Assembly (NCBI GenBank): GCA_030674155.1
Contig: CM060317.1
Span: 46,062,145 to 46,126,144 of the forward strand
Length of the DNA stretch: 64,000 nt
Origin: Stramonita haemastoma
Taxonomy: Eukaryota; Mollusca; Gastropoda; Neogastropoda; Muricidae
Reading direction: 5' to 3'
Shown one piece after another: positions 53,423 to 64,000 of the stretch (position 1 is the stretch's first letter; every line of letters starts with the position of its first letter). A model generated the notes under the pieces. The model did no database searches. It saw only the letters and a program-made list of their open reading frames with translations, and had not been told where the DNA came from. A program made the translations under genes and the position numbers.

Positions 53423-56400
53423 CTGCCAGCCACCACAATATAATATATATATATATAAGAAAGAGAAAGAAATATATAAGAAAAAAGAAAAAGAAAACAA
53501 CAATTTTTTTTTGACAATACATACATGCCTCACCTCTATCAACACTTTCATCATGTATATTGCAATGAAATGATTAATGCTTTGGGACAAGGTCCTCACA
53601 AAGTCATGATGATAAAAAAAAATAATGACAGCTTAAATATCTGTTCTTACAGTAGATAAAAAGGACGGTAGGAAGGACGGTGGCAGAATGGTTAAGACGT
53701 TCGCCTGCCAATATGTAAATCGTGAGTTTCTGGGTTCGAACCCAGCCTCGCCCTTTCTTCCCAGTTTGACGAAAAAATCGAACTGAATGTCAAAGTCATT
53801 CGGATGAGACTCGAAACCGAGGCCCCGTGTGCGAATGCACGCAGAACATCTTGCGCACACGTTAAAACCCCCCCGTTCCACCTTTCGGAAGAGTAGGCCA
53901 TCGTGTGCCGGTAGGAGCGGATGACAAAATTATAACAAACCAGCATGCACACAGGTGTCGTGTTTAGACACCATCCCTGAGGAAAAATCGGGGAGTTGGA
54001 GTTGGGATCTTTGCGCCTGGTGGCAGCATGATCTGTGGCTCTGTAAGGTCAAATGCAAGCGCTTTGATTTGTCTTACAAGAGATAGCGCTATACAAATTC
54101 CATGTATAATAATAATAAAAACAAAAGGTAAGAAGTCCCATAACATATAAGGTTGCTGTGCAGCGAGGCATCAGAGACGGGAGCTTCTTCTTCTTCAGGA
54201 GCCAGCATGTTGAGGGCAGCACCCATCTCCTCTCTCCCTCGCTGCTTTACCTTTCCTGATCCTAAAGAGGGCAGGTACCCATTTACAGCAGGGTGAACTG
54301 GGGACTGTAGTGAAGCCAAGGCGCGCAAATGGTCACCCATCCACTTGGTTACCCCGATCAATGCTTCTTAAACTTAGCTTGAGCAAAGTGAGTGCTCTGA
54401 CCACTGAACAACTCCATCTCCATTACTCTAGGACATTTCAGTTAATAAAAAGCAAAAAAACATTTAAAAAGTTTTGAAAAAACAGCTGTACAACATACAA
54501 TCATGTAAACTGTATGAAGGTGCTGAACACAGAATAATACTGTATGCAATAAGAGCATATGTTATCACGACTGTCAAACAAAACTTCCTATTCATAAACA
54601 GGTCTATATATATATATTTTCTTGTGCCCCCTATTTTCTTGCAATTGCTATTACACCAACAAAATGTAAATGAGAAATGAACATTTTTATTTAAAGTTTG
54701 TTTTTTTTTAAGTATGGCAAGTAGGTAACAACTTGTGTTGTTAATAAAGTGTCAAAAGCTAGCCACATACTTGACAGATGAATATTGAAACAAAGATTAA
54801 AAAAATCAATTTCTTGCCCTTCTGTGGCTGTCATAAGTGCTATTATGTTCTCGTTCCCCCCCCCCACCCCACCCCCACCCCCCTAATTTTTGCTCTTTTT
54901 TTCCTTTTTTTAATTGAAAGTGTCCTTTTAAATTTTTTTTTGACTCTGGATTCTCTTCAAATAACAAGAAAATCTTTTGCCTTTTTTCTTCTTCTAAAAA
55001 TGAGCAAAAGGAACATGCCTGCTAAAGAGTGTGTGTATCTTCATAAGGCAAACAATGACCGGCACAGACAGACATACAAACAATGACCGGTACAGACAGA
55101 CATACAAACAATGACCGGCACAGACAGACATACAAACAATGACCGGTACAGACAGACATACAAACAATGACCGGTACAGACAGACAAACAAACAATGACC
55201 GGTACAGACAGACATACAAACAATGACCGGTACAGACAGACAGACATACAGGGCCCAGTGAGGTACCCTGAACTGACCCCAGAAAGAAGAGACCCAGCAG
55301 CAGGTAGGTGAAGGGTCCTGTCACCTGATGGACTTGCTGCACACCTGGATCAACAGGCACACCAGAGGGATGGGGGTCATCCCCAGCGTCGACACACCTG
55401 ATCCGAATAGTCTGTGTGTGCCTGAAAAAGACAGCATCTTCAAGTAGTTTCTATGTGTCTAAAAAAGAAATCATCTTCAAGTAGTTTCTATGTGCCTGAA
55501 AAAGACAGCATCTTCAAGTAGTTTCTATGTGTCTAAAAAAGAAATCATCTTCAAGTAGTTTCTATGTGCCTGAAAAAGACAGCATCTTCAAGTAGTTTCT
55601 ATGTGCCTAAAAAAGAAATCATCTTCAGGTAGTTTCTATGTGCCTAAAAAAGAAATCATCTTCAAGTAGTTTCTATGTGCCTAAAAAAGAAATCATCTTC
55701 AGGTAGTTTCTATGTGCCTAAAAAGACAGCTTCTTCAGGTAGTTTCTATGTGCCTAAAAAAGACAGCTTCTTCATGTAGTTTCTATGTGCCTAAAAAAGA
55801 AATCATCTTCAAGTAGTTTCTATGTGCCTAAAAAAGAAATCATCTTCAGGTAGTTTCTATGCGCCTAAAAAAGACAGCTTCTTCAAGTAGTTTCTATGTG
55901 CCTGAAAAACATAATATCTTCAAGTAGTTTCTATGTGCCTGAAAAACATAATATCTTCAAGTAGTTTCTATGTGCCTGAAAAAGACAGCATCTTCAAGAA
56001 GTTTCTATGTGCCTGAACAAAAGATAGTTTATAGTTTATTTTTGAAAAAACAACTTCCCTGTAGAATTCACGTAGCTCTAGATCATTTGGGACAAGTCTG
56101 TTGTTCGTAATGGGGAACTAGCAATCTTCTGCTTCCCCTTTTTTTCTTATTTTACTCTTTTGGGCGTGAGTGGGACACCAAACTGAAGAGCTGTTGGTCA
56201 GTTGACTAATTTCATTGTATTAAGAGTCCCATCGGAGTTATCCAATACAGGGACTATACCATTAACCAGCCATTATCACATCATCTCTCCCATGTCAGGC
56301 AAGTATGAGCTTCTTGTGGAATATATAACAAACTCATTTCTTGCAGACGGATTATTTACCAATTTTAAGACTTTCTAGTAGAAAATATATAAATTAATGT

Positions 56401-59730: not shown

Positions 59731-61598
59731 ACACACACACACCACTGTCATTCAGATCCCCTGTTCAAAGATTACCTACCAGTGTTCCACTGGAACTCGG
59801 TCATGTTGCGCACAAAGACGACAAAGAGCAGGACGGAATAATGAAAGCGCTCCTTCACGTCGCTGCAGGAGATCTGCTGGAGGTTGTTCCGATCCATCCG
59901 TTTGAATAAGCTGCCTTTGATCTCCACAAACTGCACTCATCAGGTAAAAACATAATAATGATGAATTAATTTTGAAACCGGAACGAAACCAAACAACACG
60001 AATGAACAGAAAATAATGAAAATGTAACAATATAATGAAAATGTCAACAAGCCAAAAAAAAAAATAATAATAACCTTATGTTACTAATACAACAGTCTCA
60101 TTTAAACATAAATCAATAGGTCACTAAAACAAGATGGCTGTCAGGGGAGATAAGAGAGACGTCTTGGTCAACCGTTTTCTGCAGGCAGATCTCTCTTCCA
60201 CCTTTTGCATAAACACAGCCATGCCAATGATAGTGTTCCAACATGCGCCTTCAAACTCAAAGTTCCTCTGTAGTCGGAGTATGGCTGCCTATATGGCGAG
60301 GTACTTGAAAATAGTCATACACGCAAACTTCTCATTCAGTGTGCAATTGCAATCTCACAGTGATTCCCAAGTGGGATAAGTGAGTCAGAGAGCATATTCT
60401 GGGTGACCCCCCAGAGTGTTAAGCTGGGGAACAACAACAACAACAACAACAAACTCAAAGTATTACAATCAAAACACACATTTTCTGAACGTCTTTCGTT
60501 TTCGTTAAATTTGGAATAAGTTTATAATGAAGAAAGGTTGGCTTTAACCCAGCCACTGTATGGACATGTCCAATGATAACAATACAGCCTGATTTCCTCC
60601 TTTTGTTTTATTTTTAATCTCTTCTTGTTACTACTGTTTATAAGAAAGAAAGACAAACTGATGACACAGAGTACAATAATGATAATGACAATGACAATGG
60701 CTATACAAAAATGATGGCTCACATTATTAAAAATCATGATAGAAAGAAAGACAAACTGACAACACAGAGTACAATAACGATAATGAGAATAGCTATACAA
60801 AAATGATGGCTCACATTATTAGAAATCATGACAGAAAGAAAGACAAACTGATGACACAGAGTACAATAATGATAATGATAATGACAATGGCTTGCACAAA
60901 AATGATGGCTCAGATAATTAGAAATCATGGTAAAAAGAAAGACAAACTAATGACACTGAGATGTTCAATTATGATAATGACAATGACAATGGCATAGATA
61001 CAAAAATGATGGCTCACATTGTTAGAAATCATGATGGTGAGGAGAGCCTTGTTGTGAGAGTTGAAGGCCACGTTCAGTACTGTGGCCTGACCCAGAATCA
61101 GCACAGTGTGAATCACTGGCCTCCAGTCAAGAAATTCATTCACATCAAACATGGCAGTGACACCCACACACACACACACACACACCAACACACCCACCCA
61201 CACCCACCCACACACACACACACCAACACACCCACCCACACCCACACCCACACACAGGCGGATGGGATAGCCTAGTGGTCAGAACATTGCACTCGCAATT
61301 TGACGACCCAGGTTCGATTCCCGTTCGTGGACATTTTTCTCCTGGAGTTAACATCAGTGCTGACTCCCCCAAAGTCCTTAAGATGAGACTATAAACTGAG
61401 GCCCTGTGTGTGAATACACGCAGAACATCTTGCGCACACGTTAAATCCTGTTCCGCTTTTCGTAAGAGTAGGCCATCATGTGCCAGTGGGAACAGATGGC
61501 ATTTACAAAACTGTATACACATGGGTACTGGATGTAAAACAGCACAAGAGTGCTTATCCCATTATCCTCAATATAAAAGAATAAAATGAATAAATAAA

Positions 61599-61658
<60 letters not shown>

Positions 61659-64000
61659 AAGTTAGTAATCCTCTATCAGGATTACTCATGTCTTGAACTT
61701 CTCACACAAACCTAAAACGAGAAACTGTTACAAGCCTATGTCTCTGACTGCAGCTAGTCCCTTTAAAAAAAAACTTTTTTAAGATAATCTCACTCTGTCA
61801 TACAATATTCACCCAGTCCTCCACTCTTCCTGATCTATCTCCATATCATACATTTCTCACTCCCTTTTATTTCTGTGAGCTCTCCGAAAACTAAACAACA
61901 CAACTTTACAACAAACCTTCACATTTGACTTTAAAAACAGTTCATAACTATACGGCTGGGATCTTTTATTCGTTTGGGTTTTCTGTTTCTGTTGTTCTCT
62001 TTTTTCAACGATGACATCTAGGCAGCCACACTCTTATCTTCAAGGGCCCTAATGTTAGCTCTACAGCCCACTGCGAGAGGTTAAGTTAAAGTCTGTCCTG
62101 AGCCTAAGACTCATCAGGCGGTGCTTATCCCGGTTTCTGTGGCGTAAGCGACTGAGAGTCATAGACTCCCCCCTGGATAGGACGCCGGTCTATCGCAGGG
62201 TTAACCCCCAACACAAGGTTGGTACTCCTTTTACACCTGGGTGGGGTGAGAAAATAGCGTAAAGTGCCTTTTCCAAGGGCACAACGCCATAGCCGAAAGC
62301 TGGGATCGAACCCGCAACCTTTAGATTACGAGTCCAACGCCCTAACCACTAGTCTACAGCGGCGAAACTGCAAGAGGCAAAAGGATACAAATGTAGAGCA
62401 GAGCCAGCACAAAGTGGAGGGTGACGAGAGCAAAGCGACGACTTTTTCTCCCTGGTTCTGTGGCCGTCCAGTACAAAGCATCCAACATGTCCTGCCCTGC
62501 TCCTGACACCAGACGGTCGGCTAACTGTATAGACATATAAAATATATATATATATAAATTGTAACAGAGTGGACATAGGGGCCCGTGTGATGTCCCATCT
62601 CTGCACAGCTTCTCGGGTGGGTACAGTTAGCCAGTTACAGGAAGTGACCTCTAAAAAGAGGTTGCATAAATTCTACCGTTCACCATGAAGCCAAAGAGTA
62701 TGCAATGGAGGGCGTTCGACCACCACCCAAGGAAACAGAGCATCGCACAATTCGCAGGTGTGTCCGGATTTAGTAACATGACGCTGCAACAGGGCTTTAT
62801 TGCATGGGAGGTAATCTACTAACCACCCCATCACAATATCAAAGCAGGCTGTTCAGAAACATTTTACAGTTAACACAGAGTGGAGGTGGGGAAAGGGGAG
62901 AAGGAAGGGGAGGGGAGAGATGGAGTGGGGGGAGACCATTTTCCTTTCAAAGTATATTATATTCCAGGAGGTGGAATAGCCTAGTGGTTAGAGCGCTGTG
63001 CACATGATCTGTGGCCCAGGTTTGAACCATCATCGAGGCACCCGATCAATGAGATATTCGCCCTGGAATTAACTTCACTCTCCCTTTAAACCAAAATCCC
63101 ACATAGAAATGCACACAGAACATCTTGTGCACATGTTAAAATCTGTTCTGCCTTATGGAAGAAATGGCAAATGCGTGCTGGTAGGAACAGATGGCCATTT
63201 CTACAAGTTTATACACAATCATCCCCCCTCCCTCCCTACCCCGCCCACTTCACTCCAAGAAATCCCAACTTACATCCAGCATGTTGTAGAAGACATAGAG
63301 TTTGATGACCGCTTGACCACAAAATCAGCCCCCCCGCCCCCCCCACCCCAACTTACATCCAGCATGTTGTAGAAGACATAGAGTTTGATGACGGCTTGAT
63401 CACAAAATCAGCCCCCCCGCCCCCCCCACCCCCCGCCCACTTCACTCCAACAAAACCAAACTTACATCCAGCATGTTGTAGAAGACATACAGTTTGATGA
63501 CGGCTTGACCACAAAATCATCCCCCCCCCCCCTCCCCTGCCCACTTCACTCAAAGAAATCCCAACTTACATCCAGCATGTTGTAGAAGAAATAAGAGTTT
63601 GATGACCGCTTGACCACAAAATCATCCCCCGCCCCCCCCCCCCCCCCCCCCCCACTCCAACAAAACCCAACTTACATCCAGCATGTTGTAGAAGACATAC
63701 AGTTTGATGACGGCTTGACCACAAAATCATCCCCCCCACCCCCCCCCCCGCCCACTTCACTTCAACAAATCCCAACTTACATCCAGCATGTTGTAGAAGA
63801 CATACAGTTTGATGACAGCTTGACCACAAAATCATCCCCCCTCCCTCGCCCCCTTCACTTCAACAAAACCCAACTTACATCCAGCATGTTGTAGAAGACA
63901 TACAGTTTGATGACGGCTTGGCCACAAAATCATCCCCCCACCCCCTCGCCCACTTCATTCCAACAAAACCCAACTTACATCCAGCATGTTGTAGAAGACA
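52841..64000 (-). CDS. TAPT1: TAPT1, multi-pass membrane protein (C-terminal part; 5' end beyond window)
   Basis: Eight exons are found: the array exon (63255 onward), 62389-62524, 61018-61115, 59780-59930, 59029-59138, 57651-57710, 55278-55421 and 52841-53422. They read GQAVIKLYVFYNMLD, LADRLVSGAGQDMLDALYWT, QATVLNVAFNSHNKALLTIM, FVEIKGSLFKRMDRNNLQQI, FAEVVVDWVKHAFITKFNEI, HTDYSD, LGMTPIPLVCLLIQV and LVSTKVLTSILLLSWG, in the order and spacing of human TAPT1. Members sit in ER/Golgi-type membranes and, in vertebrates, at the ciliary base; loss causes skeletal disease. All junction phases agree except for two one-base gaps in 55278-55421, and probably one in the last exon. The tail after the last hydrophobic helix is long (~170 aa) and acidic. 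Given intact neighbours, assembly deletions are likelier than a pseudogene. Confidence 0.93.
53683..54118 (+). repeat. tRNA-headed SINE with family 1 core and a different tail
   Basis: The head CGGTGGCAGAATGGTTAAGA CG and B box GGTTCGAACCC are distinct from family 1. The core CATTCGGATGAGACTCGAAA CCGAGGCCCC and CACGCAGAACATCTTGCGCA C are shared. The tail GATAGCGCTATACAAATTCC ATGTATAATAATAATAA is different again. A modular exchange of heads and tails is visible. It lies in the last TAPT1 intron. Confidence 0.85.
54119..54425 (-). repeat. 5S-rRNA-headed SINE, family 3, copy 2
   Basis: In minus sense: GAGTTGTTCAGTGGTCAGAG CACTC (tRNA-like start), CAAGCTAAGTTTAAGAAGC and AACCAAGTGGATGGGTGACC (5S-like A and C boxes), then TGTAAATGGGTACCTGCCCT CTTTAGGA and CAACATGCTGGCTCCTGAAG AAG. 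It is collinear with the copy split across 41010-41609. Confidence 0.75.
55048..55250. repeat. 28 bp minisatellite, about 7-8 units
   Basis: Unit AAACAATGACCGGTACAGAC AGACATAC. It starts about 30 nt inside the TAPT1 intron downstream of exon 55278-55421. Confidence 0.95.
55278..55421 (-). CDS. TAPT1: TAPT1 penultimate exon, two apparent one-base deletions
   Basis: The acceptor TTTTTCAG opens AHTDYSDQVCRR, matching 'AYTDYSDSVARR' in vertebrates. The frame then needs one base near 55384-55391 to read LGMTPIPLVCLLIQVCSKSI ('MGFIPLPLAVLLIRVVTSSI'). It needs another near 55326 to read VTGPFTYLLLGLFFLG, donor GG/GTCAGT. The exon is 144 nt; 146 makes both junction phases fit. Confidence 0.88.
55415..56030 (-). 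repeat. 37 bp minisatellite repeating a 3' splice site, about 16 units
   Basis: In minus sense each unit reads ATAGAAACTACTTGAAGATG then a pyrimidine tract and CAG or TAG followed by GCAC. The unit next to the exon provides the working acceptor TTTTTCAG/GCACAC. Confidence 0.95.
56031..57650 (-). other. TAPT1 intron, with short tandem repeat at 56992-57160
   Basis: AT-rich. The only repeat is about five ~34 bp units of TACTCAACTATATACTAGAT ATCCACTATTTTAGA type. Nothing else was recognised. Confidence 0.7.
57651..57710 (-). CDS. TAPT1: TAPT1 exon, TYQTFKINLAQDILTSQEKC
   Basis: 60 nt, 20 codons, phase 0, acceptor TTTTTCAG, donor TGT/GTAAGT. It matches the short 'VYSEYRASLAFDLVSSRQKN' segment of vertebrates. 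Confidence 0.9.
58224..58320 (-). repeat. SINE-like family 5 copy, inverted
   Basis: Plus-strand TAGAGCTCCAAGATTCACAA CTGGTGAGATTTGCACATGC GACTG then CCCACCATTAAG is the inverse of the family consensus seen at 48140 and 42808. Confidence 0.6.
58368..58618 (-). repeat. SINE family 1, inverted
   Basis: The reverse complement gives the tRNA-like head CTTGTGGTTAGAGCATAGTG CC, then TTAACATTAGCACTGACTCG and the core GTTCGGATGAGGCTTATAAA CC, then CAAGATGTT and GTAAGAGTAAGCCATTTTGT GC. The head abuts a C run at 58618-58634. Confidence 0.8.
58845..59000. repeat. C-rich (CCCCACC)n tract next to TAPT1 exon 59029-59138
   Basis: About 150 bp of almost pure C/A on the plus strand, including C17 at 58965-58982. 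It begins about 30 nt inside the intron after the donor at 59023-59028. Confidence 0.9.
59029..59138 (-). CDS. TAPT1: TAPT1 exon with the WVKHAFITKFN motif
   Basis: 110 nt, phase 1 in and phase 0 out, acceptor GTTTCAG, donor GAA/GTAAGC. It encodes DQMWAILQDTLYVGFAEVVV then DWVKHAFITKFNEISSE; vertebrates have 'DIVKHAFITKFNDI'. Confidence 0.96.
59219..59750. repeat. (CA)n complex microsatellite, about 500 bp
   Basis: CA repeats with CACT, CAACA and CACG variants, ending in about 100 bp of pure CA just upstream of TAPT1 exon 59780-59930. In transcript sense these are GT repeats followed by the donor side. Confidence 0.95.
59780..59930 (-). CDS. TAPT1: TAPT1 exon with the FVEIKGS and ERF motifs
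   Basis: 151 nt, phase 0 in and phase 1 out, acceptor GAGTGCAG, donor ACTG/GTAGGT. It encodes FVEIKGSLFKRMDRNNLQQI, SCSDVKERFHYSVLLFVVFV and RNMTEFQWNT, close to vertebrate 'FVEIKGSVFKKFEKNNLFQM' and 'RNMEQFSWNP'. Confidence 0.97.
60643..61040 (-). repeat. TAPT1: ~95 bp tandem array carrying the TAPT1 exon end and 5' splice site, 4 units
   Basis: Units start near 60643, 60741, 60833 and 60931. Each ends, in minus sense, with ATGATTTCTAATAAT/GTGAGC and CATCATTTTTG or a close variant. The fourth unit contains the true exon end at 61018. Units 1 and 2 keep the GTGAGC donor; unit 3 has CTGAGC and loses it. Confidence 0.92.
61018..61115 (-). CDS. TAPT1: TAPT1 exon with the LNVAFNSHNKALLTIM motif
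   Basis: 98 nt, entered after one base, phase 0 out, acceptor GGCCAG, donor AAT/GTGAGC. It encodes IHTVLILGQATVLNVAFNSH then NKALLTIMISNN. The last 20 nt and the donor are part of the tandem array at 60643-61040. Confidence 0.97.
61257..61600 (+). repeat. tRNA-headed SINE family 1, full length
   Basis: GGGATAGCCTAGTGGTCAGA AC, B box GGTTCGATTCC, GGAGTTAACATCAGTGCTGA CTCC, AGATGAGACTATAAACTGAG GCCC, TTTTCGTAAGAGTAGGCCAT and an AATAAATAAATAAA tail. It is flanked by (CA)n on both sides. It lies in the TAPT1 intron between 61115 and 62389. Confidence 0.9.
61601..61658. repeat. (CA)n microsatellite
   Basis: About 58 bp of CA repeats following the SINE tail. Confidence 0.95.
62081..62366 (-). repeat. 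tRNA-headed SINE family 2, with 11 bp target duplication
   Basis: Nearly identical to the copy at 41105-41400. ACTGCGAGAGG at 62070-62080 and ACTGCAAGAGG at 62367-62377 flank it (one mismatch). Head in minus sense GCCGCTGTAGACTAGTGGTT AGGG. It sits 22 nt from the end of TAPT1 exon 62389-62524. Confidence 0.9.
62389..62524 (-). CDS. TAPT1: TAPT1 exon with the DALYWTATEP motif
   Basis: 136 nt, phase 0 in and phase 1 out, acceptor CTATACAG, weak donor ATTT/GTATCC. It encodes LADRLVSGAGQDMLDALYWT, ATEPGRKSRRFALVTLHFVL and ALLYI. A SINE insertion begins only 22 nt into the intron after this exon. Confidence 0.96.
62972..63215 (+). repeat. SINE family 1, diverged
   Basis: GGTGGAATAGCCTAGTGGTT AGAGCGCTGTG head, weak B box GGTTTGAACC, GAATTAACTTCACTCTCCCT, CACAGAACATCTTGTGCACA TGTTAAA, GTGCTGGTAGGAACAGATGG. 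The core GATGAGAC segment is deleted. Confidence 0.75.
63255..64000 (-). repeat. TAPT1: ~100 bp tandem array of a TAPT1 coding end plus 5' splice site, at least 8 units
   Basis: Each unit in minus sense carries GGTCAAGCCGTCATCAAACT G then TATGTCTTCTACAACATGCT GGAT/GTAAGTTGG and a G-rich spacer. The coding part reads GQAVIKLYVFYNMLD in most units. The array runs off the right edge of the window. The copy nearest 63255 is adjacent to the next exon (62389-62524), with which its phase agrees. Confidence 0.95.

What the first reader, a model, noticed from the sequence alone, without database searches (positions are those of the whole stretch)
63255..64000. TAPT1 exon end and 5' splice site tandemly multiplied at least eight times
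Units of about 100 bp repeat 15 codons (GQAVIKLYVFYNMLD) and the GTAAGT donor, separated by C/G-rich spacers. Differences between units are mostly silent third-position changes (GCC/GCT/GCG, CTG/CTC). One unit has G to D and one (near 63590) is frame-shifted by an insertion. No clear acceptor is visible inside the unit, so this seems to be a cluster of competing donors, or of pseudo-exons if the weak AG in GTCAAG is used. Every donor joined to 62389-62524 in phase would give the same or a lengthened protein.
Basis: partly seen in the sequence, partly recalled or inferred. Interest (0 to 1): 0.8.

Follow-up and report, generated by a model that had tools for sequence, protein, structure and literature searches.

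The report
Repeated exon-end splice sites in TAPT1
In a probably molluscan gene called TAPT1 the end of one exon, together with its splice signal, has been copied ten times into the following intron; the copies look like decoys left by a spreading tandem repeat, of a kind already known from one human gene.

Summary
The window holds eight units. Beyond its end the array continues to the true exon, ext. 64269-64453, giving 11 identical donors GAT|GTAAGT: the founder exon plus ten intronic copies of its last 45 nt and the start of the intron. TAPT1 identity is firm (Pfam DUF747, 5.2e-86; mollusc TAPT1 proteins), and no second TAPT1 locus was found.

Reading past the founder's donor meets TGA after VSWVLLE, so all ten downstream donors would give truncated products. 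Copies have no convincing acceptor, and the GTCAAG choice makes a 38-nt, frame-shifting exon in 9 of 10 copies.

Best reading: a neutral minisatellite seeded on an exon-intron junction, tolerated because the full exon still carries the first donor. The human CBS 31-bp VNTR is the same kind. TAPT1 has two more junction arrays (E6 donor, E10 acceptor), and two other exon-like stretches within about 110 kb have one each. That minisatellites favour junctions is not established: 3 of 17 placed TAPT1 junctions (P 0.053), 0 of 18 dynein exon edges, pooled P 0.24.

The parts
63239..64000 (-). Window part of the array in the intron after exon E4: copies of the last 45 nt of the exon + donor + G-rich intron start, donor spacing 83-109 bp. 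The array goes on past the window to 64268 (continued numbering), and the founder, the complete TAPT1 exon E4 (185 nt, acceptor AACAG, ending CTGGAT|GTAAGT), is at continued positions 64269-64453, minus strand.
   Evidence: homology of E4 to mollusc TAPT1
63564..63614 (-). Frame-shifted unit with intact donor (last exon-like base 63570)
63351..63401 (-). Unit with Gly-to-Asp change (last exon-like base 63357)
62389..62524 (-). Next exon E5 (LADRLVSGAGQDMLDALYWTATEP...), acceptor TATACAG|TTAGCC; joins the founder exon in phase.
60643..61035 (-). Second donor array of the same gene: end of exon E6 (matched part 61116-61018) + GTGAGC, 92 bp x 4; 1 of 3 downstream copies has CTGAGC
55417..56024 (-). 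Acceptor array of the same gene: 37 bp x 16.4; 17 acceptor-like sites 36-37 bp apart, the last one being the acceptor of exon E10

Best explanation
It is a minisatellite seeded on an exon-intron junction of TAPT1. A segment of about 90-100 bp, from 45 nt before the exon end to about 45 nt into the intron, was duplicated in tandem, and slippage or unequal exchange with homogenisation then raised it to 11 copies. The complete exon stays at the 5' end, so the normal donor is still the first one met and the only one attached to a whole exon with an acceptor. I infer that it is used almost always (exon definition) and that the ten others are decoys in the intron; when one is used the mRNA gains a stop codon after 7 extra codons and is probably degraded. 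Shown: anatomy, identity of the 11 donors, reading frames, lack of good acceptors. Inferred: order of events, donor choice, neutrality.
For: Founder exon plus ten partial copies. Units differ by substitutions and spacer length, against a plain assembly stutter. Downstream donors all lead to a stop; candidate acceptors are weak by pyrimidine count and 22 of 29 give frame-shifting lengths. Other junction arrays show decay of copied sites: E6 CTGAGC, and in two other stretches GTAAGG, GTGAGA, GTAGAA and GTACAA, as for unselected copies. Minisatellites are common here: complex arrays (unit 15 bp or more, 2.5 copies or more) cover 4.0% of 312 kb. A 221-nt piece of the array (63460-63680) folds no better than shuffles (z 0.36). 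The human CBS 31-bp VNTR, named c.1444_1467+7(16_21), likewise spans an exon end.
Against: All 11 donor 9-mers are identical although copies differ from the founder by 5.9% per site in the exon part; a rough P for an untouched hexamer in 9 copies is 0.037 (copies share changes, so it overstates). At least 4 of 6 substitutions are silent (P 0.032; by columns 3 of 5, P 0.09). Both could hint at selection or at conversion from the exon. With identical donors the one nearest the 3' splice site is often favoured (recalled), which would predict truncated transcripts. No RNA was available.
Confidence: 0.75

Rival explanations
1. Expression rheostat: the downstream donors compete in earnest, a fixed share of transcripts becomes unproductive (stop codon, decay), and copy number tunes TAPT1 level.
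For: Ten competitors with the same 9-mer; all unproductive. For CBS the title of Lievers 2001, seen in the reference list of PMC2630376, links the VNTR to reduced activity. PMC5585400 (abstract and passages) shows that a bound factor shifts choice between close donors.
Against: No RNA or population data. Copied sites decay in the other arrays. Silent-change signal weak.
Confidence: 0.12
2. The copies are spliced in as small exons and lengthen the protein.
For: Exon part is 45 nt, and 10 of 11 units (founder included) keep the frame over it. 7 of 29 possible AG choices give a length divisible by three.
Against: No acceptor at the copy start; AGs inside units have 3-11 pyrimidines in the 20 bases before them, true acceptors of E4 and E5 12; the GTCAAG choice is 38 nt in 9 of 10 copies.
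Confidence: 0.02
3. Dying gene: TAPT1 is becoming a pseudogene here and arrays spread because nothing depends on splicing.
For: Exon E10 shows two single-base frame breaks against mollusc TAPT1 (read by eye); three junction arrays in one gene.
Against: The matched parts of E2 and E4-E8 are open, and E6 and E7 are 85% and 84% identical to Gigantopelta (the other matches are lower); no second TAPT1 was found; E10 breaks may be assembly errors.
Confidence: 0.08
4. Assembly artefact: copies multiplied by mis-assembly.
For: Long G runs in the spacers (up to 22) are hard to read.
Against: Units carry different substitutions, an indel and different spacers; the locus is inside a 91.6-Mb contig.
Confidence: 0.03

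Closest known systems
31-bp VNTR of human CBS (c.1444_1467+7(16_21)), PMC2630376 passages
   Same: Tandem unit spans an exon end and the start of the intron (by my reading of the name, 24 + 7 bases); many copies; units may differ by single substitutions
   Different: 31-bp unit, mostly coding, 16-21 copies and variable in people; here about 100 bp with a G-rich intron spacer, 11 copies, variability unknown
CBS 844ins68, PMC2630376 passages
   Same: Duplicated intron/exon junction makes competing splice sites; splicing still yields normal mRNA
   Different: One duplication of 68 bp
[quoted passage not shown] fission yeast 24-bp AGGT repeats), PMC4974935 passages
   Same: Tandem copies that carry splice signals inside a gene
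   Different: There a new intron arises; here an existing donor is copied and no new intron is evident
C. elegans minisatellite CeRep25B near alternative exons, PMC4039745 passages
   Same: Minisatellite in introns near splice decisions
   Different: A repeat family at many loci holding regulatory motifs; not described there as copies of a splice junction in the passages seen

Membership tests
Exon-intron boundary minisatellite (CBS VNTR type) | Tandem unit contains exon end and donor of the same gene | tested here: met
Exon-intron boundary minisatellite (CBS VNTR type) | Founder junction intact at one end of the array | tested here: met
Exon-intron boundary minisatellite (CBS VNTR type) | Copy number varies between individuals | not testable with these tools
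   one assembly only; no second copy of the locus found
Intron gain by tandem duplication | Duplicates supply both a 5' and a 3' splice site for a new intron | tested here: not met
   by sequence only: weak acceptors in all ten units, 22 of 29 AG choices frame-shifting; no RNA
TAPT1 (Pfam DUF747) | Profile match over the gathering score; orthologues in molluscs | tested here: met
   289.6 bits, 5.2e-86 for joined exons E2, E4-E8
Alternative 5' splice site event | More than one donor used in RNA | not testable with these tools
   no transcript data in the tools

The most novel reading that the evidence does not exclude
In this genome splice junctions are preferred birthplaces of minisatellites, so a few percent of all exons carry arrays of decoy donors or acceptors that the spliceosome must ignore by exon definition. 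Five such arrays were seen within 312 kb, three of them in TAPT1. The copies could also recruit extra U1 snRNP or act as a rheostat.
Probability: 0.13. Interest if true: 0.7.

Novelty: new member of a known kind. Interest (0 to 1): 0.42.

Why it matters
Eleven donors with the same 9-mer in one intron are a natural test of how a spliceosome chooses among equal 5' splice sites: the donor nearest the 3' splice site should win under intron definition, the founder under exon definition (both rules recalled). One long-read RNA run answers it. The same gene offers a mirror test with 17 tandem acceptor-like sites before exon E10. If such arrays prove frequent, they would show how minisatellites arise at junctions and are tolerated.

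Tried and rejected
Protein extension through distal donors: rejected, TGA after seven codons in all ten. Pseudo-exons: rejected as a main reading. RNA structure: one 221-nt piece, nothing (z 0.36). Selection on copies: signals weak. Enrichment of donor hexamers in minisatellite units: 9 of 32 arrays in 312 kb against 3.7 expected from random intervals, 2 of 300 draws reaching it; acceptor-like motifs 5 of 32 against 3.6, 95 of 300 reaching it; but 42 of 624 permuted donor-hexamer sets reach 9 and the reversed set gives 7, so not claimed. Enrichment of arrays at junctions: 3 of 17 TAPT1 junctions within 10 bp of an array, array coverage 5.1% of 112 kb, P 0.053 (several junction coordinates were placed by eye; the E3 donor and the ends outside E2-E11 were not placed); 0 of 18 edges of nine dynein exons within 30 bp of an array of period 15 or more (nine of the 104 matches, chosen because they lie close together, which biases against long arrays; HMM match edges, not exact junctions; one edge has a 5-bp-period array 21 bp away, not counted); pooled P 0.24. 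Literature: ten searches were answered; two searches found nothing, the only one that names TAPT1, listed two papers on other subjects by title and abstract. Only open-licence papers are searched. From PMC2630376, PMC4974935, PMC5585400 and PMC4039745 I saw passages and abstracts only; Lievers 2001 is known by its title in a reference list. Rules of donor choice (nearest-donor preference, exon definition, decay of mRNA with early stops, U1 roles) are recalled.
Full report
OBSERVATION. On the minus strand of window 63239-64000 the sequence CTGGAT|GTAAGT occurs eight times, 83-109 bp apart. Tandem Repeats Finder finds the same array. The genome is held (2.17 Gb; window = C2:46062145-46126144). 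With the next bases fetched the array reaches 11 donors and ends at the complete exon: ext. 64453-64269 (window numbering continued), 185 nt, after acceptor AACAG. Nine of the ten downstream copies hold the last 45 nt of this exon without an indel and the tenth (donor 63570) holds it frame-shifted; each is followed by the donor and a G-rich piece of intron. The 9-mer GAT|GTAAGT is the same in all 11. The intron to the next exon (62524-62389) runs 64268-62525, about 1.74 kb, of which the array fills about 1.0 kb (start of E5 read from its printed sequence).

GENE. Five exon matches to Pfam DUF747 in the whole genome lie all at this locus. Joined exons score 289.6 bits against DUF747. The best listed protein matches are mollusc TAPT1, first Gigantopelta at 47% identity over 98% of the query (1253 matches, best 120 listed). 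With mollusc proteins I placed exons E2 to E11 on the minus strand, several ends by eye. A protein search of the genome returned 7 matches, all here. So the array sits in the only TAPT1 found.

READING FRAMES. The founder exon ends on a whole codon (GAT), and the next exon begins TTA GCC GAC, giving YNMLD-LADRL beside YNMLD-VCDRL in Gigantopelta. If any downstream donor is used, translation runs into the intron as VSWVLLE and stops (10 of 10 donors). For use as small exons, the AG in GTCAAG gives 38 nt in nine copies and 39 nt in the frame-shifted one, with 8-9 pyrimidines of 20 before it; the other AGs have 3-11, against 12 for the true acceptors of E4 and E5 (for E5 the counted stretch was shifted by one base). 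Of 29 AG choices in all, 7 give a length divisible by three.

VARIATION. Leaving out the one unit with an indel (donor 63570), 5 of 45 exon columns vary among 10 units: three silent, two replacement (G to D; F to C). A minimum of 4 silent in 6 changes has P 0.032 under random change, 3 of 5 columns P 0.09. The nine copies differ from the founder by 1-3 bases of 45 (mean 5.9%); no change in the donor hexamer has a rough P of 0.037, which ignores shared descent. These hints of constraint are weak and could come from conversion by the exon.

NOT ALONE. The same gene has two more arrays on junctions: the end of exon E6 with donor GTGAGC, 92 bp x 4, where one of three downstream copies has lost GT (exon-end identity of copies 17-19 of 25 bases); and 17 tandem acceptor-like sites, 36-37 bp apart, the last being that of exon E10. 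Read in the frame of E10's first codon (assumed GCA), 15 of the 16 upstream acceptors lead to a stop after 11-14 codons; the nearest one adds 37 nt and shifts the frame. The array unit resembles the E10 start at 9 of 15 bases beyond the shared GCACA; 135 of 20000 random places do as well. In the 312 kb around the window two further exon-like stretches show the same anatomy: L032 8429-8761 (four donors, three of them copies) and L034 8106-8689 minus (nine donors, eight of them copies each with a pyrimidine-rich acceptor and a 28-nt body). That the latter belongs to PDCD11/RRP5 is recall only: Pfam gave just weak TPR matches below cut-off for two pieces of that region and nothing for the L032 exon.

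HOW IT WORKS. The simplest account is a minisatellite born on a junction. Since the first unit is always the real exon end, the gene keeps a normal donor at the normal place. By exon definition the full exon, with its acceptor, should win; the copies lack one. I hold this likely but untested: no RNA was available. The opposing rule, that the donor nearest the acceptor is favoured when donors are equal, is recalled; PMC5585400 (abstract and passages) reports factors that favour either donor of a close pair.

IS IT GENERAL? Not shown. Three of 17 placed TAPT1 junctions fall in arrays against 5.1% coverage (P 0.053); 0 of 18 edges of nine dynein exons do; pooled P 0.24. The other two arrays were found by looking at arrays, so they cannot be added. 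Donor-hexamer enrichment in array units fails the permuted-hexamer control.

KNOWN KIND. Human CBS carries a 31-bp VNTR written c.1444_1467+7(16_21), which I read as 24 exon bases plus 7 intron bases in 16-21 copies, and the 844ins68 duplication of an intron/exon junction (PMC2630376, passages). Fission yeast genes with several 24-bp AGGT copies and introns across them are cited in PMC4974935 (passages). The present array is a new member of this kind, with a longer unit; I saw no described case with a founder and ten copies of an identical donor in the ten searches named under Tried and rejected, which is a narrow look.

VERDICT. Worth attention as a natural test of donor choice.

Noticed in passing
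window 60643-61035 (-): Donor array at the end of TAPT1 exon E6, 92 bp x 4; one copied donor reads CTGAGC.
   Followed up: yes
window 55417-56024 (-): Seventeen tandem acceptor-like sites, 36-37 bp apart, before and including the acceptor of TAPT1 exon E10.
   Followed up: yes
window 55278-55421 (-): TAPT1 exon E10 shows two single-base frame breaks against mollusc TAPT1 (after CRR and after SI, read by eye): assembly error or a damaged gene.
   Followed up: partly
L034:8106-8689 (-): Exon end copied eight times; each copy has a pyrimidine-rich acceptor, a 28-nt body and a donor, like a row of micro-exons. A second array (57 bp x 7.8) lies just before the same exon.
   Followed up: partly
L032:8429-8761 (+): Exon end GVSAQRYGRWKRK with donor copied three times downstream, 87 bp period; two copied donors read GTAAGG and GTGAGA.
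   Followed up: partly
window 55049-55250: 28 bp x 7 array with a GTATGT motif about 25 bp after the presumed end of TAPT1 exon E10.
   Followed up: partly
window 61990-62370 and 62960-63010: Stretches resembling tRNA-derived SINEs (by eye, not searched) beside TAPT1 exon E5 and in the array intron.
   Followed up: no
continued window numbering 96044-96130: 21-bp coding repeat inside a long open frame that looks like a U-box protein (by recall).
   Followed up: no
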